The notes under the pieces are model-generated. The model had not been told where the DNA came from and searched no databases. It was given only the letters and a program-made list of their open reading frames with translations. This document shows, in pieces, positions 1 to 55,196 of a stretch of DNA of 64,000 nt. The DNA comes from Phorcus lineatus (Eukaryota > Mollusca > Gastropoda > Trochida > Trochidae): positions 33,712,839 through 33,776,838 of the forward strand of contig OV121091.1 of NCBI GenBank assembly GCA_921293015.1, read 5' to 3'. Numbering within the stretch: the first letter of the stretch is position 1; the number at the start of each line of letters is the position of its first letter. The position numbers and the translations under genes are program-made.

Positions 1-3000
1 ATGCTTGAGTTCTTAAAGCTGGCCACAAAACAAAGAGGTGATACCATAATCAACATCATATTTGGATGTTTTAGTTTAATCATTTTAATCCAAGGTGTCA
101 GGGTCTGTCAGGATTAACTTAACAATGGCCAATAACTAACATCGTGAGTTACCTTCAGTCAGGCCAGGCTAAATATTTTTAAACAGTTTATGCAATGAAA
201 TATTGGAATGTGCAATATTGATGATACTTAAACATGACAAGTAATACAAACAATCAGCAGTGGATTTGTACAATCCAAACAAAACAGCAAACAAGAGCAC
301 CGCACCATGAAGCTTAACCAGAAAACCTCCCTGAAACCTCCACAAACAAGACCTCACCACAAATAGTACCCTAAACAACAGCCATAGAAAAATAGTCCCG
401 TGTACAGCAATATCTATTTGGAATGTTTTCAAAAGCTTACCTACTGGATTAATTAGAGTCATCTACAGAGTTGCATGGTCAACGTTTATCGCCCATTACC
501 ACATTTTATAAGAGGCACCCAGTCCTGATTTTTTCACTATTTACATTATTTTTATATTCTTATTCATAATTATTCATTCAGGTATCCTTAATCTTCTTCA
601 CAAATAAAAGGGCTATGAATCAACAGAACATGTCATTAAATAAACACACCAAAATTTTTGGATAAAAGTTACAAAACATTTCAGACATTTTTTTCCTTTA
701 AATAAAAAAAAATAAATAACTTTATAACTTTTACAGAAAATAAGCAATTATATTGTTATTTAAATATATAATTTTTAGGGTTTTACCACACCTAAATGTT
801 TTTATTAGATGCTATTAAATTCATCGTGGTATATATAACAGAGGTATTATAACTGTAATACATTCACATTAATTTTGTGATAATGGATGCTGTATGAAAT
901 GCAATGATAACCTAATCTGTCATGAACTGGCTCCTTGACGACTAGAAAAGACAAGTTATACTTGACAGAAATACAGAGGTAAACAAGTTGTTCTGTCAAT
1001 GAAAAAACTGCTTCAGATCTCTGGCTAAATGACTTCAACCACCAAGCAAAAAGAAAGTAATGCTATTAGATTTGAATTATTTTTCCCAAAACCGTTCTTG
1101 ATTTGACAAATTCTATAAGAGAAAATGCTGATTAACAAGAGATATGAATGGAATTCTTAGCAGATTTTATGACATTTGTTGTCTAAGATTAACAATACAA
1201 ATGGCAAAAGTTTTTATGATCGATCACAATACTCCCTCTTAAAATTTGAAAGGAAAATATTAGTGCTGTTCAACTACACTGCAGCCCAGTTTTAGAATGA
1301 GCTCTCTTTGCGCTAAGACAGTTGAGAAACAACTTCATATACAAGACTATAACTAACAACTATCTAAGTATGAAGATAGGTATTGTCTGGCACCTCATCA
1401 GCTCTTGATAGAGACTTTAAACTCAACCTAGAACCATCACATAAGAAAGATACACTATACAGCAATAAACTACTATCACCATACACAGCCATGAAGCAGG
1501 AGAATTAGCACACATGACAGTTTAGAACTCAACTCTGCAGAAAACTTGGAGCTGGAAACAGCTGAGAGAAAACTGTTTCCCTGAAATAACCTCGCTTAAC
1601 CAGTAGTTTAATGATTTTAAGGTATTCATAAAGGAATGAAATACTTCAACTTTGCGTCTATTTCATATCTTCAAGAAGCAAACTATAGTTGGCACTTCGC
1701 ACTAAATTAGACATTGTTAAGGGCAGAACATAATTTACATGGTAAAATTTAAAAGTTTCAGAACCGAATTGTTTCAAACACTTATGTTTTGGCTTGTAAT
1801 TGTCAAAAGTCAAAAGCATAATCTTAATGAAGAAAAAACAACTTTCATGTCATGTCAACTGAATGTTTTGAGACAATCATGTGTAACTTAAAAACAATTT
1901 AATGCTTGGCAAACAAATAATAAACATAGATGAATATATTATGGAAGTAAGTAATACTAATGGTAAATAAGTTAAACTAAATACATCTTAATCAAAACAA
2001 AAGTGATTGTACAGTGAAATAAAAACAAGACTAGCACTAATAAGAAAAACAATACACATAAGATACACCTATTTGTGCTTTGCACATATTCCATATCTCC
2101 AATCAAACTTGATGAAGTCATAGATATAAAAATTTCTTTTTAAAGGCAAGTGATAATTTCACAAAATCCAAGCCAATACATAGGAATTAGTGGACTGAAT
2201 AGCTAGATTTATTCCTGGTTATATGGTTCAAGTCATACAGAACAAGAATCAACCATTCAACATGAAACATGAAACAGAAATATGGAGGTTTCTTTTTACT
2301 AAAATCTGCCAAATAACCTTTGTGATCCGATAAATTTTCGCATCATTCATAGAACTTATTATTCCGAATTCACATATGGATTTCATTTTAATTACTTCAG
2401 TACCATTTTGGATATGTCAAAAGCAGCGTGACAATCAAACGTATACACACTACAATCTTACAGCCATTGAGACAATTTAGACCAGCACAAAAACTAAACC
2501 ACAATGATCAAGATCTTGAACAAAAACAAATACAACAACATGTCTAACAGATGATGACAGTCAAACAATGATGTGTCCTTTGTATAATAATGAGATTAAG
2601 ATGACACTTTATACATTTAAGCTTCTGGTAACTGGAAATCAACCAACAAACATTCTCTGTTTTCACTTCAAGTTGAGGCGGAGTCTACCTAATGGCATCA
2701 TTGAGGAGGAATGGAACCAAAGCATTTAAATATTATAAACATGTAACAGTAAACTGGTTTGAAAGTGAGTCAGAGACAAAGGAATGTCACTCTGGACTAA
2801 CAGTCTTTTAACATGTCGCAGGACTCAGTCTTTTTAATAAAAACCCCAAACTAAACAAGCTTTTAAAGGGGAAGAGAAATGAGGGATAAAATCTTGGAAG
2901 TAAAATTGGTGCAATATCTTTAATTGAGATTAATTTTTCACATTGTTTTGTGTGGAGGACTGCTGATTATCTTGAGTTTCTGGACTAAAAAGTTTCAGTT

Positions 3001-3130
3001 GGTAGACTGATAGTGGATGAACTCCATGAACAGTTAAGTATAGAGAGAAGTGATGAGGCTAGTAAGAGTCTACTGTACAGTGAATAAAGGACTATGTACA
3101 CGTATACATCCTAAAGCTCTGGTACTGCTG
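1..3130 (-). other. Presumed 3' UTR or downstream flank of the tetraspanin gene
   Basis: This AT-rich stretch lies downstream of distal last exon B. No convincing coding exon is visible on either strand. A minus-strand frame at 462-169 is open for 97 codons, but I recognise nothing in it and it has no upstream splice support. The end of the transcript is not identifiable by eye. Confidence 0.4.
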
Positions 3131-3205
3131 TTAGAGGAACGCACTGGGATTTGCTCTCGGGTCCTTCTGGTTTCGGTATCTCATTGCAAGCCATACACCA
3201 ACAAT
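3131..3205 (-). CDS. Tspan13/31: Tetraspanin alternative last exon B (distal; residues 205-228 and stop)
   Basis: After a pyrimidine-rich acceptor (gtgactttgtttcag) the exon reads IVGVWLAM, then [16 protein letters not shown] and TAA. It replaces exon A in frame. Only the TM4 end differs (IVGVWLAM against ILGVWITV). The 3' UTR should run into 1-3130; one AATAAA-type signal is at 2213-2208, but I cannot say which signal is used. Confidence 0.9.
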
Positions 3206-6200
3206 CTGAAACAAAGTCACCTTTGTAAGTCTCAATACACCACTGGCAACTACAATTTTAGAGCAACCGTAACAAAATATAGACTTTAAACTAGCATAAA
3301 TGCACAAGAGGTATCTCTCAAAAAAATACATTCTTTATAACTGACAAATTGAATCATTACAACTAAAAATGCTTTCCAAGAGCAGTGATAAATTTACACA
3401 ATTCCAATGTTTTAAATAAAGTAAAATATTAGAATGTGTTACTCTAGTTAGGAAATCTGAATATCATGAATGTGAAGTGTGACTTTCCATAAATCTAAAC
3501 AATATTACATAAAAATTTCCATTCACTGTATTTTAAAAAAAACCCCTGACCCCTTGTTTCACAGAATTTGCATTTAAATCATTTCTTTACCTTGGAACAA
3601 ATCCATAATATCAAATGAGATCAATAGCAACACAAACTTAAAAAACTAATCAAATGTAAATGAATAAAAATATCTTACAAACAGTAAGCTAAGCAAGAGC
3701 AAAACTAAATAATCACAGTAGATTTCACCGACATCTTGATAAGAGAACATCTCTAAACCTGTCAGAATGAATTATTTGTTTCAGAAGGATGTGTGAAAGT
3801 GGAATGAAAGGTACAGATCCATTCTGCAAGCTGAAAGTTGCATGTAAGATGGATAGGTTAGCAAAGTTTGATAAATACTATAGTCTGACAGCTTCCTTCC
3901 TGAATTGGAATCGGTCAAACTCAACTTATTACCACCAGCTGATAGATGCATGCAAGACAGAAAGCTTAAGATTTTTTAGCAATGCTAGAAGATATCATAG
4001 CTCTTAACTTTGGTTCCTGAAGATAAGGCATTGTCATAATTGATTGAACTGATAATTTGAATAGACTAAAGGGATCACATGACTCCTTCAATATTGTGTT
4101 GATGTGTCAAGGGTGCTAATAAAATAAATTGAAAACTCTGCTAGTTTGAAGGAACAGCTAAAACCAAAAGGTTTTTCATTGTATAGAGTACTGTATATTT
4201 CATGAGCTGGGTGATTTGATTTTGGGTTTAACGCCTCTCTCAGGGTATTTCACTTATATCATGGCTGCTACTATTAATACAGAGAGAAAACCTGCAACAC
4301 GTCGCTATGTATTATAGTGAAACCTGCAATTATTTGATGACTAGGTGGAATGGAATGTCACAGAATTGATATTTGAAAATACAGATTTATGCCCCTGTTA
4401 TGTAAATTAATGAATGCAGTAAAACATTTGTCTTGTGAGTGAGGAAGAAATTAAAAACAAATCCTGTTTTTCCTTGATATGTGTCTCTGTAAAGACACTA
4501 CATGAATAACAATTTCTAAGAAGAAATCTTGATGAGATGAGTTCAGTATATCCTGACAACTAAAACTGTGTACAGATCATTTGATCATTTTGATATGGCA
4601 ATTTTTCAGGGGACTGTCATATTCGTTGTGAATCAAATGAGATGAAATTTATCACTTAAACCTTTACAATGACAGGCAATGAAAATAGTTGCTACAAGTG
4701 AGAAAAAAAAAAAAATTCTTCGTTGGTTTGAAGTTGTTATGAATAAATTGTAACAACTTAATGTTTCTGCTACAGTAAGTTTTGATGGATGCAACATATG
4801 TCAGACAAATAATGATGAAATGTACATGCAACAGCTGATGAGATTTACAAGAGCAACAGTATCTAGGCATTGTGAGCCATTCAGAGATTATGAACGAGTT
4901 CTCACATTATGGTGGACAAATAAGAGCGAACAAAGCTATTTGCTGAATTCAACTGTACAACCATACAAGAGTCACCAGCCAGCTCATAATTGAGCCTCAT
5001 AGACTCATGGAGCATACCGGTACTTGTTTGTATGATAACCATGTTTCATGGAAAAAAGACATTGGCTCTGCAGCTCATCAGGATATTAATCAGCTGAGGA
5101 ATCTGTACACATAATTTGAGCTTTCTAGGCCTTTAGTTTTTGGAAAATGAGACAAAAAATGTTCAGTCACTTTCCACTGACTTTAACAATCATGTAATGT
5201 TTAAAAGTGTCAATAGTTGAAATAAAGCATTTTCACAAAACAATGTGCAAGTTGTGACCTCGCCTTGACCATTGACCAACTGTAGTGAAAAACCTAATTA
5301 AATTTTGGTATTTCTCCATAGTTACTTTATAAAAAATAAGAGCCTCATAGCACCAAAAATTTTCCCTTGTTTATAAGTATTTTTTTTCAAAGAAATTTAA
5401 TAACTGACGACCTTAACCCTTGACCTTGAATAGGAACTTATCAAAAGAATTTCCAGGGTGTATAATCTAAAAATGGTTAATACAAATTCTCTATAACTAT
5501 TTCTCGTTTAAAAATTTGATTAAATGCTGAACATGGCTCGAAGGCCAAGTTTAACATTGCACCGCTGATATAATATATCCATTTTTTCCTATAAGCAAAC
5601 AAAGTAAGCAAAGCTAGAAATGACCTTCTCTTGACTCGATATATTATTTGTATGTCCAAATTCATTGTTCCAAAATTCAAACAAAACAATTACTACCACA
5701 AATGGTTGTGATCTAGCCTCAAACACTTCAATGTACTCACCTACAACATAGTTTATCCGACATTTTAAGCGCTCAACACTGGCGCTCAAACCGTTCTTCA
5801 TGTCCATTACCCTAACAAGTTTCTAGTACGAGTTAATGAAGAATAGGGGAGGTAACTCTAAATACTTTTAAGATCACATGATTGTTTCATATCAACAGCT
5901 TTCAGGTAGTTTAAAACCTTATATCAAAAATCAATCAACACAACAACCCATAACATGAATATAAACAAAAATGGTAATGGCCAAAGGAAGCCTAATTGAT
6001 AATTCTTATAATCATAACCTTAACTTTCTTTATTCAGTTGGGGGCAGGATAGCACAGTACCACCCATGGTTCGCTAGTTCCAGCCGACGCTCACAGGTTT
6101 CAGCGCAATGCATGGGCACAATGGTGTTGCGGGCTTTTTCCCTGCAATAATACTAGCGGTCCCGATATAACTCTTGAAAGCGGCTTTTAACCCCACCTTA

Positions 6201-9200
6201 CCTCACCTTTATTCAGTCACTAAATGTATAAACAGTTATTCATTCACTCAATATACAGGAAGCTGGTGGAGGTAATGAACTTGAATAAATGTTTGAGCAG
6301 CAGTGTTGAGCGCTTAAGTAAACTATTTATAGGTGAGCAATTGAAACATAAGAAGCTGGAATTAGGAGATTACAACCCTATGTAAGCAAGATTATTTGGT
6401 AGTTGATCATTCTTGTAATCCAGAATATATGTTTCGTTAATTTACACTATTAACTCTGGACCCATCCTAGATTTAAACTGATAATTTTTTTACCTCCTTT
6501 GCAGGGCTTTAATCCAATCAGCTGTCTCTGCTGCCATGTCCAGCAGACCAATCAACTGACTTCAATCATGAAACCTCCGCTTCCTAGTTACACAGTACAG
6601 CAGGGACAATCTAATTAACTGTATTTTCCATGAGTACAGGCATTGGTAGAATTAAGTTTTGTATGTCATCCATTTAGACAGAAACACTATAACCATGTAA
6701 TTTCATTATCCCTTGTCTTAGAATAGATAATCTGCCTCCTGTGCAGAGAATAAATTGAAAGAAACTTACTTATTATCTTAATTGCCAGGGCAATAGAAAA
6801 CACTCAACACTTAAAACAAGATGCCTGTCGGAAACAATATGAAATGCAAGTAAGCACTTGTACTAAGTGCAAGGTAGATCATAATGTAGAATTTGAACTA
6901 ATTATTAACTTAAGGAGAATTCGATTGGTAATGGAAGATGGCTGGACTAGCAAAGGGAGGTAATAAAATTATCGAGTCAAGCCTATGATGGGTCCACAAC
7001 ATATACTGTAGAATTATTATATGGAACATATACTCTTGATTATTTAGGATGGTAGTTGATTCGCTATTTAGAAAAGAGAAATCATCAAGGGTTAGTAACA
7101 ATTCAAAAGAGTTAGATTGTGTTGCTACAGATTTGTGTACAGAATTAAAGAACAGTTAATACATACAGTAACTTTAAAACAATTCAGTGTATGTATTGAA
7201 CAGACATTAAAGATAAAAATGTTCATCCATATTCATATTTACAGTTAATTACAAGGAAAGTAGTTATGAATTGGCGAGGTTAGGTGTTGTAAAGGAACAA
7301 ATCACTTATATCAATACAGTCTGATATTAGAGTAATCCTAAATGGGTCATGGTTTGTTTTAACAATAAAAAACCCATCAATATTCTTTATTCAATGCCCA
7401 GGTTTAGTCAAAGCCTTTGTTTTATTCAGGAAAAAATTGTTATAATAAGCTAGGTGGCCACTGGCTATATGGTGAATTTTGGCACTTCATATAGATGTTA
7501 ACTCATTGCATATGTAGTTAATAAGTTGTTCATACACAGAACTAACTCTTTTAAATCAAGCGTCACCAAGAATGATTATACCAAGTCAGTAGCAACACAA
7601 TAAAAGCAAACCGTAACCTCAAGCAGCATGCAGTTCACCAATGCCACCATATTAAAACCTTTACCATTCTCATTAGTTTATTCACTACAGGTACTACGGT
7701 TACAGAAAGGCGCTAGGGTTAGCTCGTGGATCTTTCTGATTGCGATATCGCACGGTTATCCAAACTCCAAGAATCTGTAAATGATGCAAAGCAGACTAGA
7801 TTGTTAGGGCCATGAAAGAAATTCTGATGGAATAATTACGTCAAGTGGTTAGTGTATGGTAATGGTGTTAGATGAGGATACCCGAAGCATGGATTTCTTA
7901 GTAGTTTCTCATGCTTCATGCTTTTCCCCCATCAATTAATTCCAAAATTAGATATTATTAACAACAACTGAGGATGTAAATATTCCAAAGACACAAAATT
8001 TTGAAAAGATTTCAAATTATATAATATATTGGTTACTTACTACAAACTAACATAAAAAGGTTTCCACAAAATCCCATGTCATATATAATCCATCCAGATA
8101 TTCTCATTTAACCTACATGAATAATAAATTTCTGTAACACCACATCTTAACAAGAATAATTAAAGCATATTGGACCAAACGATATAAAATATTTTAGAAA
8201 TCCTGTACTACTCACCTCTGTGAAACTAAAGAAGAGTCCAAATCCCCCAGTAAGCGTGAAAGCAGAGTATATTTTATCCTGGAGTTTTTCAAAGCAAGCT
8301 GTGCAGGGACATTTTGAAGTTCCATTCCCGCCACTACAACAGAATGCATCAGGGGCATCTGCACAGCAGGTAGCTGCCTGAAATACAGAGATAATCCAAA
8401 AGGTTACAACATTTCTAAGTCTGAGATCCCTTACTAACAAAATTTTATCTTCGACTTGCCAACAAAAAGAAAAAATGAAATCAATACCTCGCTTCATTTT
8501 CAGTACATTTAATATATCACATTGTCTTAACCTCCAGAAAAAGTAACTACAATAATTTCTCTATTTATTGGACGCTCAATTTTTCAAAGATTTACAGAAA
8601 ATGCCCATGGTCGAACTATTATTCACTTTCATAGGCTTGTACGACACTCTAGCCAAACTACTAAAAAACAAAGAGCCGTGTAATTTTACTGCATAGATAA
8701 TAAACTGTAATAAATAGCAATAAATATTGTCAATATTGATTTTACAAAAATTATGATTATTTTGATGTTGTTAATTTTGTCAGAGACAAAAAAAACAACC
8801 AGCGTTTGTCACTCCTTAATACTAGTTATTCATTGTTGTAAAATCTTACAAATCAAAAGATCATAAGATTTTACCAATAATTTGTTAGGAAAGTACAGTT
8901 GATAGACCAATTATGGACGAAAGTGACCACAAAAAACTTTTGATATCAAATAACATTGTGGGATGGCGATTTCAAGTGAATGAGTAAAGTTTTAGCTGAC
9001 ATCTTATTAACTGAAAATTTGATAAAATTTCTATCAATCAGTACCGGGTACTTCAATGGAAACCTGATCCAGATCAAGTTTAAATTTAAACACTAACAAT
9101 CCCCAAGTCTTTTGCCTTATTTGAAATGAGAATGGAGGTTTACTGGAGATCTGATAGTAAAGACAAGCCTGATATTACACCTTTTGACAAACTTGCCCTA

Positions 9201-12131
9201 CATACATTATTACATATAACATAATAATACATATATAACTGTACATATAACATAACATATACTTATATAACTGTACCATTATACCGCAGAATTTCAAAAC
9301 TTATCTCTTATTCATTAGACTGTCAAAATGATATGTAGCGATCAAACAGGTGGTTAACATATTTTCATTACGACATATTTCGTATATAGGTTGCATAATT
9401 TCTTTTTAAGAATTTTGATTGGCGAAAAATAAATCATTGCTACATACGCCGAACTTACATAATTGGTATTGAAATGTCGCAAGCACACTGCAAGTGAAAT
9501 CAGACTGCCAAATGTTGTCACAACAATCAGACTGGTTTAACTAGTCTTATTTTTTATGACAAAGAGGTGACCATTATGTAAACCCATCGCATTCAATTCT
9601 TTATTCAATGGTCCCTAATTTTACCTATTGGACCCGCCAAGCGGAATATATGTCGGATGTCCTGTCACAATGGCGTAACTCTTGGCATTCAACTGCTATT
9701 TAGTTTATTGTCATGACGTTCAATCATTATGAACCAATGAACTTGTAGATTATATATTCAACCAATAACTTAAGAGAAGGAGATTTGGCTCATGGACCTC
9801 TACCGACGACAACACTCATTTGAAAAAGTAGATCGTGAGTAACGGGTACCCAAATTCTTTAGGATTATATAGGATTTTTCTAACGTGTGCGCCAGGTACG
9901 TTATCATATCACTAATTGTAAAATTCAAAGACAGAGACATTGCCACACGGTATGAGCTGTTATATCAGATAAAAATATATGTTAGTTAACTACAATCAAA
10001 TCATCCACTTAATAACTAAGTTGTCATGAAAATGAAGTGAAAGAAAAGAATTTTTCCTACGAAATATGATACAAATGCCACTACAGTAAACATCAGATAA
10101 TATATTACATTGTCTCCCATTCATTAAAAAACTTTCATTTTTTGGAGACAATTTAAAACTTCATATCGATAAATACATGATAAAACAATACGTGTTATTC
10201 CATTGTCAGACGTCATGAATCTCTCACTGCCCCAGTTCTAAACTTTTTTATATAAACCCACCCGAGAAAACTGCATTCAGGGATTGTCACAGTCCAATTA
10301 AAGTGGATTTGACGACTGAGAAGGAAAGTTGATATCATAAAGCAGTAATATATATTATTTAGAAATTCTTTCAGTCATGCTATTGTCTCTATTTGGCTGC
10401 TGAATTAGCTTTAAAAAACTCAGCTTACCTCTAACACGTCACACACTGGGCGTGGCTTCGAGGATTACTACGATGATTTGTCAAAGTGTTCGCCAGTCTC
10501 ATTAGGCGGTTATCAAAACAGGGGTATAAAAGATGTTCTATTGGTCGAATTAAAGCGTATAGTTTCACATTTTTTGGCTCTATTGATTCTTATAAATTTT
10601 ACAAATACAGATAATATTTTGAAATAACAAAAATTATGCGTCACGTCTCCTCTTTAAGGTACACCAAGCCAAAAAGTTTGCATCTTTCCCAAGGACAGTC
10701 TCTACAAACCAAACTGAATTACATAATGAATTTTTCCAGATTTAAGATTTGTAAACATCAGTTTGAGTCCAATTGAGATAATCATAAGTAAATTCATTAA
10801 TCAATTAAGTTTATGGGAAAGTACCTACCCCGTAGCATGGCGGATGACCCATAGGTTCAGTGGCATTCAGTGACTGGTCTTTATATCCACAACAGTTGAA
10901 GTTTGTCTGCACATCATTCTTGGTCTCAGGACTTGCAAGCTGCCAACCCTGCTGAGCAATTTTTTGTTTCTGCTGTGTGTTGACGGCCAGACAAGCACAT
11001 GCAAGTGCAAACTGGATGAGGAACAAAATAAACAGGATGATCATGTACTGCAACTGTCAAGGATTAAACCATATGATGGACAATAACAGGCTCAGAGAGC
11101 TAATGTGTAGCTAGTTTTAGAACTAAATTAACTCATAATCTTCAATTGGTGTCACTAGAAAGGGTTTTGACTTTGTTGAGAGTAGATGCATGCATTTCTT
11201 GCCTAAACATTTTGCAGATCTTGAGAGGAAAAACTTTATCATTCATTTATAATTGTGAAAACACTTTTATAGCAAACTGCCCTGGTTTTGCGAAACTTGA
11301 AAAGAAAAGTACAATAAATGATATAAATGACACTGATCTGTAAAATATAGTGATTAAAACAAAGGATACAAAGAAGAGAAGGACTTGATGATGCTTGATT
11401 GCTCCAATAAGGCCAGTTAGTGAGATGAAGAGAAGAAACACTCCACAGGAAATCAAACTTCCAACCAATGTTAGGCTGGTCACAACTGCTGCTACACGTC
11501 CATAGGCAGCAATTCCAATCAAAAAGAAAGATATGAGCTGGAAAATACAAGACAACATGACAAAGTTAGAGGTTTTTAAAACATGCACAATAGTTCACTT
11601 TGAAAACTTATATGAAAATACCATTAATTTTTTAGGATTTGTTAAAAAAGAAACATTCCTATTATCTATAAGAGAAATATTTTCACAAAATACCCAAAAT
11701 TGAATAATGATAGAATTAGATGTAATAATTCGTCTTCATGATTTCACTGCAATAAATACTAAACTCATTTTTGATTGTTTGGATTTATTATAACAATCTT
11801 TAAGACAATTTGTAAAATATTTGATGAATTAAAGGTTTTCCAATTTAATCTGAAAGACCTTTGACAGTGTATTTCTAAACATTAACAAAATTACACGTGT
11901 TTTCGAAGACACGTCACATCTTTGGTATTTATAATCAAATTATTCACCGGCAGTCGCCCTGATCACATGTCGGTCATTTGTGAAACAGATAAGACGACCT
12001 ATCACACGACGCAGCATTGACGGTGGCCTTTAAATGGATTCCTTTCATAAATAACAACGAATACTTACCACATACAGCACATTTAAAGCCGCAAGGGCAT
12101 TTTTGGAACACGTAAACCCTCCACACACCAT
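3131..12131 (-). CDS. Tspan13/31: Tetraspanin gene (TSPAN13/31 type), whole coding span with two alternative ends
   Basis: Coding exons on the minus strand are 12131-12069, 11537-11370, 11047-10829 and 8377-8216, followed by either 7774-7700 or 3205-3131. Every intron is phase 0 with GT-AG ends, and either form gives 228 residues. The protein is a four-pass membrane organiser: TM1 about residues 12-34, TM2 39-66, TM3 72-99, a large extracellular loop 100-185 and TM4 190-212. The loop has the tetraspanin CCG motif (129-131), further cysteine pairs for disulfides, and N-glycosylation sequons NAT (138-140) and NGT (168-170). The start MVCGGF, the stretch [15 protein letters not shown] and the tail [16 protein letters not shown] are hallmarks of the TSPAN13/TSPAN31 branch. 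Tetraspanins of this kind recruit partner proteins into membrane microdomains; the partners here cannot be read from sequence. The loop appears somewhat longer than I remember for the vertebrate relatives. Family assignment is very secure; which of the two vertebrate paralogues is closer is not decided. Confidence 0.95.
4221..4331 (-). mobile_element. 5'-truncated SINE tail
   Basis: Read on the minus strand, this 111-bp piece matches the 3' half of the SINE at 17091-17384 (CAGGTTTCACT, then GTGTTGCAGG, then a run ending GCGTTAAACCCAAAA). It is flanked by the 7-bp direct repeat ATTTGAT (4214-4220 and 4332-4338), as expected for a truncated retroposed copy. Confidence 0.7.
5741..5807 (-). CDS. 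Candidate short first exon, inverted sister of 6275-6385 (unknown)
   Basis: An ATG at 5807 opens 22 codons ([20 protein letters not shown], then VV) that end at a strong donor-like TAG|gtgagt. It lies on the same strand as the tetraspanin, inside the intron between its alternative last exons. The same start, the SVERL core and the GGTGAG donor-like end recur in inverted orientation at 6275 onward with an in-frame 6-nt difference. I do not recognise the peptide. It may be a small nested gene or a relic of an old inverted duplication. Confidence 0.25.
6039..6206 (+). mobile_element. Internally deleted tRNA-derived SINE with perfect target duplication
   Basis: The element starts GGGGGCAGGATAGCACAG, like a tRNA-type head, and passes straight into the 3' body (TACCACCCATGGTT...CCCTGCAATAATACTAG). 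In the full-length copy at 17091-17384 these two parts are separated by the rest of the head and a middle segment. The join falls at a shared AGCRCAGTA, so it is a microhomology deletion derivative. It is flanked by the 11-bp direct repeat CTTTATTCAGT at 6028-6038 and 6207-6217. Confidence 0.85.
6275..6385 (+). CDS. Candidate small reading frame, inverted sister of 5741-5807 (unknown)
   Basis: The + strand reads 36 codons beginning [20 protein letters not shown] and ending GDYNPM before TAA. It is homologous at the nucleotide level to the minus-strand sequence at 5807-5735, including the block AGTGTTGAGCGCTTAA and a downstream GGTGAG. The two frames point away from each other, and a SINE was inserted in the spacer. 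Conservation of frame across the pair is suggestive, but the frames are too short to prove coding. Confidence 0.2.
   Translation: MNLNKCLSSSVERLSKLFIGEQLKHKKLELGDYNPM
7700..7774 (-). CDS. Tspan13/31: Tetraspanin alternative last exon A (proximal; residues 205-228 and stop)
   Basis: After the acceptor acag, 24 codons read ILGVWITV followed by [16 protein letters not shown] and TAA. This completes the inner end of TM4 and the cytoplasmic tail. It has the same length, phase and stop position as the distal version at 3131-3205. Possible AATAAA signals lie downstream at 7426-7421 and 7391-7386 (reverse complement). The exon has no codon-level damage: all differences from its sister within the tail are synonymous. 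It was too short to stand out as an open reading frame. Confidence 0.88.
8216..8377 (-). CDS. Tspan13/31: Tetraspanin exon 4 (second half of large loop and most of TM4; residues 151-204)
   Basis: The exon is 162 nt, acceptor ctctgtatttcag|GCAGCT and donor ACAGAG|gtgagt, both phase 0. It encodes the cysteine-rich distal loop ([14 protein letters not shown], then CPCTAC), the NGT sequon and TM4 up to GLFFSFTE. It is the last exon common to both transcript forms: the donor can splice to the acceptor at 7775 (441-bp intron) or to the one at 3206 (5010-bp intron). Confidence 0.94.
8378..10828. other. Tetraspanin intron 3, with promoter-like block at 10429-10560
   Basis: No coding exon is recognised in this 2451-bp intron. 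Around 10429-10560 are a minus-strand donor-like TTAGAG|gtaagc (exon end at 10429), a GGGCGTGG box, a TGACGTG half-site and a + strand TATAAAAG at 10525-10532. The rest is AT-rich with no repeat that I could pair. Confidence 0.4.
10829..11047 (-). CDS. Tspan13/31: Tetraspanin exon 3 (TM3 and first half of large loop; residues 78-150)
   Basis: The exon is 219 nt, starts [13 protein letters not shown] and ends PPCYG|gtaggt in phase 0. It holds TM3, the CACL cysteines at its outer end, the CCG motif and the NAT sequon. I placed the acceptor at the second of two AGs 6 nt apart (gacag-TTGCAG|TAC), because this gives [13 protein letters not shown], the spacing I expect for the family. Using the first AG would insert Leu-Gln. 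Confidence 0.92.
11370..11537 (-). CDS. Tspan13/31: Tetraspanin exon 2 (TM1 end, small loop, TM2, start of TM3; residues 22-77)
   Basis: The exon is 168 nt, entered after a pyrimidine-rich acceptor (tgtattttccag) and left at TTCTTT|gtatcc, both phase 0. It encodes the second half of TM1, a short extracellular loop with only a few polar residues, the whole of TM2 and the conserved intracellular stretch [15 protein letters not shown] that leads into TM3. That stretch is one of the best family signatures in the window. The following intron is only 322 bp. Confidence 0.94.
12069..12131 (-). CDS. Tspan13/31: Tetraspanin exon 1 (start codon, residues 1-21)
   Basis: The exon encodes [20 protein letters not shown] plus a final V and ends at a strong donor (GTG|gtaagtat). 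The start codon has A at -3 and G at +4, a good initiation context, and the N-terminus matches the family start. Cys3 and Cys8 lie next to TM1 and are likely palmitoylation sites, as is usual in tetraspanins. The following intron is 531 bp. The transcription start is not defined but should lie within about 12140-12290. Confidence 0.93.
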
Positions 12132-12294: not shown

Positions 12295-12456
12295 GATAAA
12301 TAGAGAATCTCACCCAAGTGTCTTCTGATATCAAATATATCAACACAAGTTGATAAAAGTCACAAATATCCGAGGCTTGCCGAGGATATTTAACTTTTAT
12401 CAACGAGTGTTGATATATTTGATATCAGAAGACATGAGGGTGAGATTCTATTTATC
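12295..12456. repeat. Foldback palindrome (MITE-like) just upstream of the tetraspanin gene
   Basis: Two arms of about 75 bp pair almost end to end: GATAAATAGAGAATCTCACC at 12295 is mirrored by GGTGAGATTCTATTTATC ending at 12456, and CTTCTGATATCAAATATATC is mirrored by GATATATTTGATATCAGAAG. The apex is AAATATCC-GAGGCTTGCCGA-GGATATTT. It starts only about 165 bp upstream of the tetraspanin ATG. Confidence 0.85.
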
Positions 12457-17090: not shown

Positions 17091-17384
17091 GTCGTCGCTT
17101 TCAACAATATTTCACATATATCGTGACTGTTAGTATTATTGCATGGAGAAAGCCTGCAACACAACTTTGACTATGCATTGCAGTGAAACCTGCCAGCATT
17201 GGCTTGAACTAGTCAACCATGGGTGGTACTGCGCTGTAATTTAGTGTAGCATTGCACCCAAACCTTACTGCGTGTAGAACAGTTCTCTACTGCAGACAAA
17301 GTTGCAGAGCCCCTGGCGCGATTCAAAACCACGGACCTCTTGATCTGAAGCCAAACACGCTAACTACTGCGCTATTCCACCCCC
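17091..17384 (-). mobile_element. Full-length tRNA-derived SINE with perfect 12-bp target duplication
   Basis: On the minus strand the 294-bp element begins GGGGGTGGAATAGCGCAG. An A box-like TAGCGCAGTAGTTAGCGTG and a B box-like GGTCCGTGGTTTTGAATC follow, the internal pol III promoter of a tRNA head. A middle segment and a 3' body (TACCACCCATGGTT, GTGTTGCAGG, GCAATAATACTA) complete it. AGTTCATATTAG is duplicated at 17079-17090 and 17385-17396. Related pieces lie at 4221-4331 and 6039-6206. Confidence 0.92.
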
Positions 17385-51679: not shown

Positions 51680-52303
51680 AGAATTATATATATTTTCAAA
51701 ATTAAGGGAAATTTGGTATAAATATCTCATGTAAAAGCATGTACTTTCCTGTTTGCTTGCAGGATATTTAAGAAACATTCCCTGTGTATATTTGATATCA
51801 TACAGACACACAAATATCATACGAATACAAGTTGTCATGCTGAAGAAAGGTATATACTTATTTTGATGAATTGTACATATATTTTCAAAATTAAGGGATA
51901 TTTGGTAGAAATATCTCAAGTAAAAACATGTACCGGTACTTTCCTTTTTTGCTTGCAGAATATTTAAGAAAGCCAATCTCTAACTAGTTGTAAATCAGGA
52001 AACATTCCCTGTGTATATTTGATATCATACAGACACACAAATATCATACGAATACAAGTTGTCATGCTGAAGAAAGGTATATACTTATTTTGATGAATTG
52101 TACATATATTTTCAAAATTAAGGGATATTTGGTAGAAATATCTCAAGTAAAAACATGTACCGGTACTTTCCTTTTTTGCTTGCAGAATATTTAAGAAAAG
52201 CCAATCTCTAACTAGTTGTAAATCAGGAAACATTCCCTGTGTATATTTGATATCATACAGACATACAAATATCATACGAATACAAGTTGTCATGCTGAAG
52301 AAA
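51680..52303 (+). repeat. Tandem array, 227-bp unit, about 2.7 copies
   Basis: TATTTTCAAAATTAAGGG recurs at 51691, 51880 and 52107. The last two units are 227 bp apart and almost identical. The first unit is 189 bp and lacks the segment containing CTCTAACTAGTTGTAAATCA. The repeated minus-strand frames (TTCIRMIFVCLYDIKYTQGM) are shadows of the array. Confidence 0.92.
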
Positions 52304-54752
52304 GCGAGCGAGGATAGTGAACTACCTGTGTGACTGATTGACTGTTTTATGGGATAAATAAGTCACTCATTTACAGGTAATTCATCATCCATACTTCTTC
52401 ACATCAGTAATACAACTAAGATTCAGGGAACAATAGAAAGGTTGGTGCAGAGGTGTTCTCCCTGTCAAAGAACTCAAGTCAAACATGTTTTTTCATTGTT
52501 TTTTTATTCTTTAAGTATTTTGACACTTTGTATGGTTTTTTGTGTAGTAAAATTATATTGTTCAGTCTAAATCCCACCCTCATCTGCTTTATTGCATGGA
52601 TAAGATATACACTCATGTTATAGTGGATAATTTACCTGCCTCCCTGTGAGAGGTTGCTCGTGAGTGCATGTGCAATGGCCTCCAGCCTGCTAACCCAGAT
52701 ACCAGCCCCATCATCTCAGTGACGAGAGACCCACAGCTCTTTACTTACAGATCTATCTTGTCTGTCATCTAGACTTACCAAAGGCTTCTTCTCAGATCTA
52801 CAGCAGCTTTGATTTTCCTGCAACTCAAAAGTCAGATCTTTTTATTTGACATGCTGGGCTACTACTTTTCCTGTTTTTCTTGTTAGATTTGCTATGGGTC
52901 TGTAACATTTTAATAGGTTTCTTGCAACTCAGATCTAGACTTACTTATCTTCTCCCTGTAATTTGATATTAGCCCTTTTCACTTAAGGATTAAAGCCATT
53001 CATTTTTTAGGTTTCCTTGTAGAAACTCTGTTGGTGTTGTGCATCTCAAAGAAAGATCTTTACATCATGGAATTAACTTTCTTCAATTTGAAATTACCAA
53101 TGAAAACCTGGTTTTCCCATTTGACCTTCTATGGACCTCTTGTTACTCAAATCATATACTTTATCTTGATATTCTACAATTCTATGTTTTGAAGTCTCTG
53201 GTATTTTCCGGCTACAATACCTCTTGCTCCTATTACACCTTGTGGACAATTGTTGATGAATGATGTGTTTGATTTCTGATAAAATGCCTAAACCTTAGGT
53301 CCATCTTTGGATATTTTATCATGGTAAGAAACCATAGATCAGCTTTGGGTTAAGAACATGTATGTCCTAAGACTACTAACTGATCCGAACCCTGAGATCA
53401 ATAATAATTATACATATGTTTCAACACCAGCTAAGATTAGGGGCTAGGATCATTCACTGGAGTGACATCTTCATAATAATATGTCATGTTAATGAAAATA
53501 ATTATCATAAAAATTGTAATACTGTGTCAATTCTGTGAAGAATTATATGATTAGGGATTGTAATTCTATGTCAGGTGAATGTTAATGATTATCTTGAGAA
53601 ATTTTCACAAGAATTCCTGTTCCTGATCTTGATTGGTTCCTGATTAGCTTGTGGAGTGAGGCATGTCCCTCCTATCAGGCTTACAAGTATCTCCCACTGG
53701 GTCCATTAGTCTTCAGCATGTACTGATAGTAGAAGCTATGTAATGTACCATTGCTGCCAGCACTTTTGCAAGTGAAACTCACTGACATAGACTTATCCCT
53801 CAGCATTCCTGATAAAGCAACTAGCCACATCAGTCTACGACCTCTGATTTATAGTAGACGCTGCATAATGTACCATAAGCTCCAGTCCTAGGTGAAAGTT
53901 ACCATGATAATGGAGATGATGAAAATAATGATTATAAGTACCTTTAGCACCTCTGCTAATTACCATAATAATGATGTTCAGTGGCTTGATGAGGAATTTG
54001 TGTATAGCACCTAACTGCTCCTGACAATTGTTTAAATGAGCGTATATGTAATGAAGGGTGTCCTCCTACCCTAGATGGTATTGTTAACCACCTCAGATCT
54101 CAGATCCATTGTTGTTTTTATTAAGAATGCTACATGTTGCAGTGCCACCACTCACTGCTAGGATGATTTACTATACTGTATTAAGGAACTGACCATACAC
54201 TTTGCCATGTCTCTCAGACTTAGATTGTAAAGATAAGGACACCATGTCTGTATTGAACTATCAACATGACATCCCTTTGAAAACTTTATTCGCATAAGAT
54301 AATCAAGATAATCACATTGACCACCTTCAAGCTCAAACCCTACACTGTTTCGATTGATGTTACATACATCTCTTTGCCATATCTCTCTGCAAGCACGATC
54401 AGCTGGTCCTCATAAGAGCATTGACAACCTTCCATCTCAGTCACTGTACTTCACCTCTAGTAAAATTAAGATATTTAATGTTTTTTTGCAATGTTCACTT
54501 ATTCCTCATGATTCAATAAATATCCTTAAGTAATTTTTTTAGATATCCAGTTTGATATTCATAGGACCTGCAACCTCTATAACAGGCTTTTGGTCCCTGT
54601 ACAGTTTCAGGTCGTAGAGCTTTTCTACCATCACTGCATTCATCCCATGTGCACCATTGGCCCCTGCAGAATCTTATTGCTGTAACATGGCTTCATATAC
54701 ATGTTGACTATCAAAGGGAATTAAACTGATCACATATGGACTTTCAATGCCT
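52304..54752. other. Gene-free stretch, TAAT-rich in part
   Basis: Between about 53400 and 54000 there are many TAAT/ATTA cores (homeodomain-like) and a diverged internal repeat (AGTAGAAGCTATGTAATGTACCAT near 53735 and AGTAGACGCTGCATAATGTACCAT near 53847, partly quoted). No exon is supported. It could be a regulatory block. Confidence 0.35.
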
Positions 54753-55196
54753 CACATGGACTATACATATGAAGTGATCTCTCCATGAACTTCCTTCATG
54801 CTTACCATACCACATCTGACTTCCCCTATACCATCTTTACATGGACTATGATTGAAGAGATCTCTCTATGAACTTCTTTCATGCTTACCGTACCCCATCT
54901 GAATTGCCCTATACCATCCTTTCATGGACTATGATTGAAGAGATCTCTCTATGAACTTCTTTCATGCTTACCGTACCCCATCTGACTTCCCCTATACCAT
55001 CTTTACATGGACTATGATTGAAGAGATCTCTCTATGAACTTCTTTCATGCTTACCGTACCCCATCTGAATTGCCCTATACCATCCTTACATGGACTATGA
55101 TTGAAGAGATCTCTCTATGAACTTCTTTCATGCTTACCATACTTCATCTGAATTGCCCTATACTGTGCTTGGTATGTCCTTACATGGACTACACAT
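54753..55196 (+). repeat. Tandem array, 83-bp unit, about five copies
   Basis: ATGGACTATGATTGAAGAGA starts units at 54841, 54924, 55007 and 55090, each exactly 83 bp apart. A diverged first unit starts at 54756 and a partial unit follows 55180. Units alternate between CTGACTTCCCC and CTGAATTGCCC, suggesting higher-order duplication of unit pairs. Confidence 0.93.

What the first reader, a model, noticed from the sequence alone, without database searches (positions are those of the whole stretch)
3131..7774. Two alternative last exons of a tetraspanin, both under strong coding constraint
Exons 7774-7700 and 3205-3131 have the same length, phase and stop, and follow the same donor at 8216. They encode the identical 16-residue tail [16 protein letters not shown], yet 15 of those 16 codons differ synonymously. 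Saturated silent change with zero replacement means both copies have been kept by selection for a long time. Only the inner end of TM4 differs (ILGVWITV against IVGVWLAM). Since the tail is the same, the choice may serve to switch the 3' UTR and its regulation, or to tune TM4. I am not aware of a description of this arrangement for TSPAN13/31.
Basis: partly seen in the sequence, partly recalled or inferred. Interest (0 to 1): 0.78.

Follow-up and report, generated by a model that had tools for sequence, protein, structure and literature searches.

The report
Twin ending exons in TSPAN13-type gene
An animal membrane-protein gene carries two old copies of its final exon, both still protein-like, so it can probably end its messenger RNA in two ways while keeping the same protein tail; this is a known kind of gene layout, in a gene where I found no earlier report of it.

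Summary
A five-exon tetraspanin gene lies on the minus strand (12131-3131). Exons 1-4 occur once in the window, the last exon twice: 5A (7774-7700) and 5B (3205-3131). Both are 75 nt, phase 0, preceded by AG, ending in TAA; each gives 228 residues. The 16-residue tail is identical while 15 of 16 codons differ silently. A codon model strongly prefers constraint on both copies over one copy neutral since duplication (lnL -86.0 v -104.9). Silent divergence is at or beyond saturation. A U12-type intron 2, as published for fly Tsp97E and human TSPAN13, and the tail mark it as the TSPAN13/31 orthologue. Best reading: an ancient tandem duplication of the last exon, kept as alternative last exons that swap the 3' UTR and slightly alter inner TM4. 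Duplicated terminal exons are known (oyster AOX exon 10, KRAS 4A/4B, 77 of 236 human events). No transcripts or relatives could be examined, so use of both junctions, host and age are unproven. New member of a known kind.

The parts
12069..12131 (-). coding exon 1 ([21 protein letters not shown]), donor GTAAGT
   Evidence: tblastn with recalled human TSPAN13/31 as bait; exact limits
11370..11537 (-). coding exon 2 (TM1-TM2 region); followed by a U12-type donor GTATCCTTT
11048..11369 (-). intron 2, U12-type by its donor GTATCCTTT (11369-11361) and branch-like TCCTTGAC (11063-11056) close before the AG
   Evidence: U12 consensus recalled; fly Tsp97E and human TSPAN13 have a U12 intron 2 in PMC2831892 Table 2 (passage)
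10829..11047 (-). coding exon 3 (TM3 and first part of the large loop with CCG)
   Evidence: also found by the PF00335 genome search at G000:C17:33723691-33723885, E 5e-4
8216..8377 (-). coding exon 4 (second part of the large loop, start of TM4, ...FSFTE), single donor GTGAGT for both last exons
7700..7774 (-). alternative last exon 5[28 protein letters not shown]
7386..7699 (-). candidate 3' UTR of 5A: AATAAA starting at 7682 (18 nt past the stop), 7426 and 7391
   Evidence: motif positions; not tested by 3'-end data
5765..6317 (.). repeat-derived stretch between the two last exons (64-nt inverted arms 5765-5828 / 6254-6317, 78% complementary; 6051-6169 has an 82% copy at 17117-17235)
3131..3205 (-). 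alternative last exon 5[28 protein letters not shown]
2833..3130 (-). candidate 3' UTR of 5B: ATTAAA starting at 2924 and 2838; nearest AATAAA only at 2213
   Evidence: motif positions; not tested by 3'-end data

Best explanation
The last exon of the TSPAN13/31 orthologue was duplicated in tandem long ago, and both copies are kept as alternative last exons. SHOWN from sequence: one donor (8216) upstream of two homologous phase-0 terminal exons with intact acceptors, reading frames and stops; identical tails with saturated silent change; downstream sequences that are little alike. INFERRED: splicing from exon 4 to 5A with a proximal poly(A) site gives isoform A; skipping 5A and splicing to 5B, 4.5 kb further on, gives isoform B. 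The two proteins differ only in four conservative hydrophobic residues at the cytoplasmic end of TM4, so the main effect of the choice is probably to give the mRNA a different 3' UTR and to put it under different splicing and poly(A) control by tissue or stage, with fine tuning of TM4 second. I put about 0.85 on both exons being used coding exons, 0.7 on either-or use, and 0.6 on the regulatory effect being the larger one.
For: Coordinates, splice dinucleotides, phase and stops. One copy of exons 1-4 in the window, two of exon 5, so 5B is not the end of a second complete gene here; no further copy of any exon in the next 10 kb downstream. Codon model on the tail: both constrained lnL -86.0, one copy neutral since duplication -104.9, both neutral -111.7; on all 24 codons -144.9, -160.6, -168.5. 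A copy neutral for 0.10 substitutions per site would keep all 16 residues and the stop with probability about 0.02, for 0.20 about 0.0006. Both spliced proteins match Pfam PF00335 (81.3 bits with 5A, 84.0 with 5B, cut-off 32.1). Orthology: four introns and a U12-type intron 2, as in fly and human. Each last exon is followed by its own poly(A)-like motifs, and the 60 nt after the two stops agree at 23 of 60 positions (background 0.28 per site, P 0.05). The window lies inside a 49.4-Mb contig. Precedents: oyster AOX exon 10, human C-terminal events, KRAS 4A/4B.
Against: No transcript evidence for either junction. No orthologue was found in the collections available (neither is meant to hold animals), and a search of the own genome for other copies of the spliced protein or of the tail did not complete. 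The 5B acceptor has the poorer pyrimidine tract (0.50 of 16 positions against 0.75 for 5A and 0.625-0.75 for exons 2-4), and 5B has no AATAAA nearer than 918 nt. A crude RNA-pairing scan did not support competing intron structures (20, 7 and 5 of 60 shuffles reached the observed energies). The first 15 nt after the two stops agree at 9 of 15 (P 0.01), so a shared 3' UTR element or residual homology is possible and the UTRs may be less independent than I assume.
Confidence: 0.7

Rival explanations
1. Not either-or: as reported for the oyster AOX, one mRNA class carries both copies, 5A as coding end and 5B as untranslated sequence behind it, and the other carries 5B alone.
For: PMC5589949 reports that CvAOXB incorporates both duplicated exons while CvAOXA has only the second (passage). 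Here the 400 nt after 5A have one donor-like site, GGTAAAG at 7665, about 35 nt after the stop.
Against: 5A has its own AATAAA 18 nt after the stop and two more within 310 nt; 5B is kept as a coding frame, though in this model it would also be coding in the second mRNA class.
Confidence: 0.12
2. The duplication serves the protein: 5A and 5B encode TM4 inner ends that suit different membrane partners, and the UTR difference is incidental.
For: All 4 replacements of 24 residues fall in the first 8 positions. Recalled human TSPAN13 (ILGVWLTY) and TSPAN31 (ILGVWLAM) differ from each other at positions 7 and 8 there, as 5A and 5B do; over the 8 positions 5A matches TSPAN13 at 6 and TSPAN31 at 5, and 5B matches them at 5 and 7. 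[quoted passage not shown]
Against: All four changes are conservative and hydrophobic. The mapped TSPAN13 interaction with CaV2.2 persists without TM3, TM4, the large loop and the C-terminus and is lost on mutating TM2 (PMC7567506 passages).
Confidence: 0.3
3. 5B (or 5A) is a relic: the last exon of a lost tandem gene copy, or a copy that has recently fallen out of use.
For: 4.5 kb with a repeat-derived stretch separates the two; the 5B acceptor has the weaker pyrimidine tract.
Against: No second copy of exons 1-4 in the window or the next 10 kb; a copy neutral since duplication is disfavoured by about 19 lnL units on the tail; 0.10 neutral substitutions per site would leave the tail and stop intact with a probability of only about 0.02. 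Very recent loss of use cannot be excluded.
Confidence: 0.06
4. Assembly artefact or sequence mixture (two haplotypes or two loci joined).
For: None direct; no raw reads could be examined.
Against: The copies are 69% identical in DNA (52 of 75) with flanks that are little alike, far beyond allelic difference; the window lies well inside a 49.4-Mb contig of a 958-Mb assembly in 74 contigs.
Confidence: 0.02

Closest known systems
Duplicated terminal exon 10 of alternative oxidase (AOX), Crassostrea virginica and C. gigas (PMC5589949; abstract and passages seen)
   Same: Tandem duplication of the last coding exon, each copy with its own stop, same protein length; 63.5-65.9% DNA similarity between copies there, 69% (52/75) here.
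   Different: There the 41-aa peptides differ at 14-15 positions, one mRNA holds both copies, and expression was shown to shift with air exposure; here 4 of 24 residues differ, the tail is identical and no expression is known.
[quoted passage not shown] start of the abstract and passages seen)
   Same: Homologous exons spliced alternatively; 77 of 236 human events swap C-terminal regions; described as mostly ancient.
   Different: No TSPAN gene is named in the main text ('TSPAN' 0 occurrences; supplements not seen). An identical tail at saturated silent sites was not described in the passages seen.
KRAS exons 4A/4B (PMC9882654, preprint; passages seen)
   Same: Alternative use of two last exons that alter the C-terminus of a membrane-bound protein.
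   Different: The KRAS tails differ strongly (recalled); here the cytoplasmic tail is the invariant part.
Drosophila PGRP-LC, CG42235 and pip 3' variable regions (as described in PMC9013439; passages seen)
   Same: Alternative 3' terminal regions chosen mutually exclusively.
   Different: There competing RNA pairings are reported to control the choice; my crude pairing scan here gave no support.

Membership tests
Tetraspanin (PF00335) | match above Pfam gathering score | tested here: met
   81.3 and 84.0 bits against a cut-off of 32.1
Tetraspanin (PF00335) | CCG motif in the large extracellular loop | tested here: met
   NFNCCGYK in exon 3
TSPAN13-like group (PMC2650405) | introns 1, 2, 4a and 6 | tested here: inconclusive
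   four coding introns, all phase 0; the number fits, but the published positions (Figure S3) are not held, so site by site agreement was not checked
TSPAN13-like group (PMC2650405) | six loop cysteines in the order CC-C-C-CxxC | tested here: inconclusive
   CC, single C and a closing CxxC (CTAC) are present, but the loop stretch NFNCCG...CTAC holds 10 cysteines, four more than six
TSPAN13/Tsp97E orthologue | U12-type intron 2 of 4 | tested here: met
   GTATCCTTT donor and TCCTTGAC branch-like site in intron 2 of 4 (consensus recalled); U12 in fly and human per PMC2831892 Table 2
TSPAN13/Tsp97E orthologue | tree or reciprocal best match among tetraspanins | not tested
   no animal proteomes held; only recalled human TSPAN13/31 were used as bait; the own-genome protein search was unanswered
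Tandem duplicated alternative last exon | adjacent homologous terminal exons of equal phase, each with acceptor and stop, one shared donor | tested here: met
Tandem duplicated alternative last exon | both copies under coding constraint | tested here: met
   lnL -86.0 against -104.9
Tandem duplicated alternative last exon | either-or inclusion in mature transcripts | not testable with these tools
   no RNA reads

The most novel reading that the evidence does not exclude
The two last exons are an ancient bilaterian pair, a 'TSPAN13-type' (ITV, with Thr-7 as in recalled human LTY) and a 'TSPAN31-type' (LAM, as in recalled human LAM). This lineage still makes both from one gene by splicing, while vertebrates split them between the two genes TSPAN13 and TSPAN31 after genome duplication. 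The excess of silent differences over random expectation would then mark selection to keep the two exon sequences apart. The evidence rests on two or three residues and recalled human sequences; a shared ancestral LAM, or convergence, explains it as well.
Probability: 0.07. Interest if true: 0.7.

Novelty: new member of a known kind. Interest (0 to 1): 0.42.

Why it matters
If both junctions are used, this is a natural experiment in which an invariant cytoplasmic tail was duplicated and kept letter for letter while its codons changed almost completely, so exon choice can be read largely as a switch of 3' UTR and processing. It would also give a way to ask whether vertebrate TSPAN13 and TSPAN31 divided up an older splicing choice.

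Tried and rejected
A second complete gene copy: peptides of exons 1-4 found one convincing copy of each in the window and none in the 10 kb downstream (L009). A third last exon: none in the window (next best match E 0.32) or in L009 (best E 0.13), that is 13.1 kb past 5B; further away is untested. The PF00335 search of the own genome gave 28 matches exon by exon, of which only exon 3 of this gene lies in the window; it cannot tell whether another TSPAN13-type gene exists. Its loci L001-L008 were not examined. Recent duplication: disfavoured by saturated silent sites. Competing RNA pairing: three region pairs, energies reached by 20, 7 and 5 of 60 shuffles; this used full-length duplexes and is insensitive to short helices. 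Conserved flanks: first 15 nt after the stop 9 of 15 alike (P 0.01), intron side 8 of 15 (P 0.03, includes the AG), weaker with length. Relatives: genome contigs 32 pattern matches, none confirmed; viral contigs 5, none confirmed. PDB: two weak tetraspanin matches, UPK1B E 0.0098 and CD81 E 0.23. Ten of the 25 long ORFs listed were scanned and had no Pfam match at E 0.1. Rfam and tRNA scans: nothing; the bacterial promoter scan has no bearing. Tail peptide in papers: 0 hits. The codon model assumes equal branch times, kappa 2 and GC 0.40, on a coarse grid; the best omega for the tail was the smallest allowed (0.001).
Full report
WHAT IS THERE. The gene runs on the minus strand. Coding exons are 12131-12069, 11537-11370, 11047-10829, 8377-8216, then either 7774-7700 (5A) or 3205-3131 (5B). 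Exons 1-4 are followed by GT, exons 2-5 preceded by AG, the junctions are all phase 0, and either ending gives 228 residues. Pfam calls both products tetraspanin. Exons 1-4 occur once in the 64-kb window and the last exon twice; the next 10 kb downstream hold no further copy. The window lies in a 49.4-Mb contig of an unnamed 958-Mb assembly.

THE TWO LAST EXONS. They share 52 of 75 bases. The 16-residue tail is identical although 15 of its 16 codons differ; 4 of the 8 preceding residues differ. Independent random choice among synonyms would leave 5.3-5.9 of 16 codons identical; at most one has probability 0.005-0.010. I noticed this after seeing the data, so it is at most a hint of selection for difference. 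In a pairwise codon model the tail gives lnL -86.0 if both copies are constrained, -104.9 if one has been neutral since duplication and -111.7 if both are neutral. If one copy had been neutral only lately, 0.10 substitutions per site would leave tail and stop intact with probability about 0.02. So both were coding for most of their separate history.

WHICH GENE. PMC2650405 defines TSPAN13-like tetraspanins by introns 1, 2, 4a and 6 (passages); this gene has four, whose exact sites I could not compare. Intron 2 begins GTATCCTTT and has TCCTTGAC just before its AG, the marks of a U12-type intron (consensus recalled). PMC2831892 lists intron 2 of 4 of fly Tsp97E and its human counterpart TSPAN13 as U12-type in both (passage). 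PMC2965184 counts TSPAN13 among three tetraspanin lineages with reliable protostome orthologues, and among those that kept two or more ohnologues after the vertebrate genome duplications (passages); that TSPAN31 is the other one is my own knowledge, as the text does not name it. The tail matches human TSPAN13 at 16 of 16 and TSPAN31 at 15 of 16 positions as I recall those proteins. Against a plain fit, the large loop has 10 cysteines, four more than the published six-cysteine pattern.

HOW IT PROBABLY WORKS. One donor faces two acceptors, each followed by a stop and its own poly(A)-like motifs: AATAAA at 7682, 7426 and 7391 after 5A; ATTAAA at 2924 and 2838 and AATAAA at 2213 after 5B. Choosing 5A or 5B should therefore change most of the 3' UTR (23 of the first 60 positions alike, 9 of the first 15) and the protein very little. 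The intervening 4.5 kb holds a repeat-derived stretch with inverted arms and a copy near 17.1 kb. The 5B acceptor has the poorer pyrimidine tract, so 5B may need help to be used; that is inference. A published interaction of TSPAN13 with CaV2.2 depends on TM2 and not on TM4 or the tail (PMC7567506, passages), so it gives no reason to expect a strong effect of the TM4 change.

AGAINST AND UNKNOWN. There is no RNA evidence. No related locus was found in genome contigs or viral contigs, which are collections of bacteria, archaea and viruses. The own-genome Pfam search answered on its tenth try (unanswered; answered), but works exon by exon and said nothing about further last exons; the protein searches that could were unanswered. 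RNA pairing between introns was not clearly stronger than in shuffles.

KNOWN OR NEW. The layout is known: duplicated terminal exon 10 of oyster AOX (PMC5589949), 77 C-terminal swaps among 236 human tandem-exon events (PMC9741552), KRAS 4A/4B (PMC9882654). For TSPAN13/31, the splicing survey PMC6773723 lists one Tspan13 and three Tspan31 mRNAs, with no alternative last exon in the rows seen. I saw no report of such a pair among the listed results of searches. Searches listed only 20 of 58, 20 of 615, 25 of 426 and 10 of 420 hits, and the library covers only openly licensed papers. I rate it a new member of a known kind, distinguished by an unchanged tail at saturated silent divergence.

Noticed in passing
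window 11369-11048 (minus strand): Intron 2 of the tetraspanin gene looks U12-type (GTATCCTTT donor, TCCTTGAC branch-like site), matching the U12 intron 2 published for fly Tsp97E and human TSPAN13.
   Followed up: yes
window 10829-11047 and 8216-8377 (minus strand): The large loop has 10 cysteines, four more than the six of the published TSPAN13-like pattern.
   Followed up: no
window 5765-6317: Repeat-derived stretch between the last exons with 64-nt inverted arms (78% complementary); 6051-6169 is 82% like 17117-17235.
   Followed up: partly
window 12304-12449: Inverted repeat, 64-nt arms 88% complementary with an 18-nt spacer, about 170 nt upstream of the start codon in exon 1.
   Followed up: no
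window 51772-52304 and 54750-55163: Tandem arrays with 227-bp (99% match) and 83-bp (92% match) units.
   Followed up: no
window 3130-3116 and 7699-7685: The first 15 nt after the two stops agree at 9 of 15 positions (AGTACC core, P 0.01), a possible shared element.
   Followed up: partly
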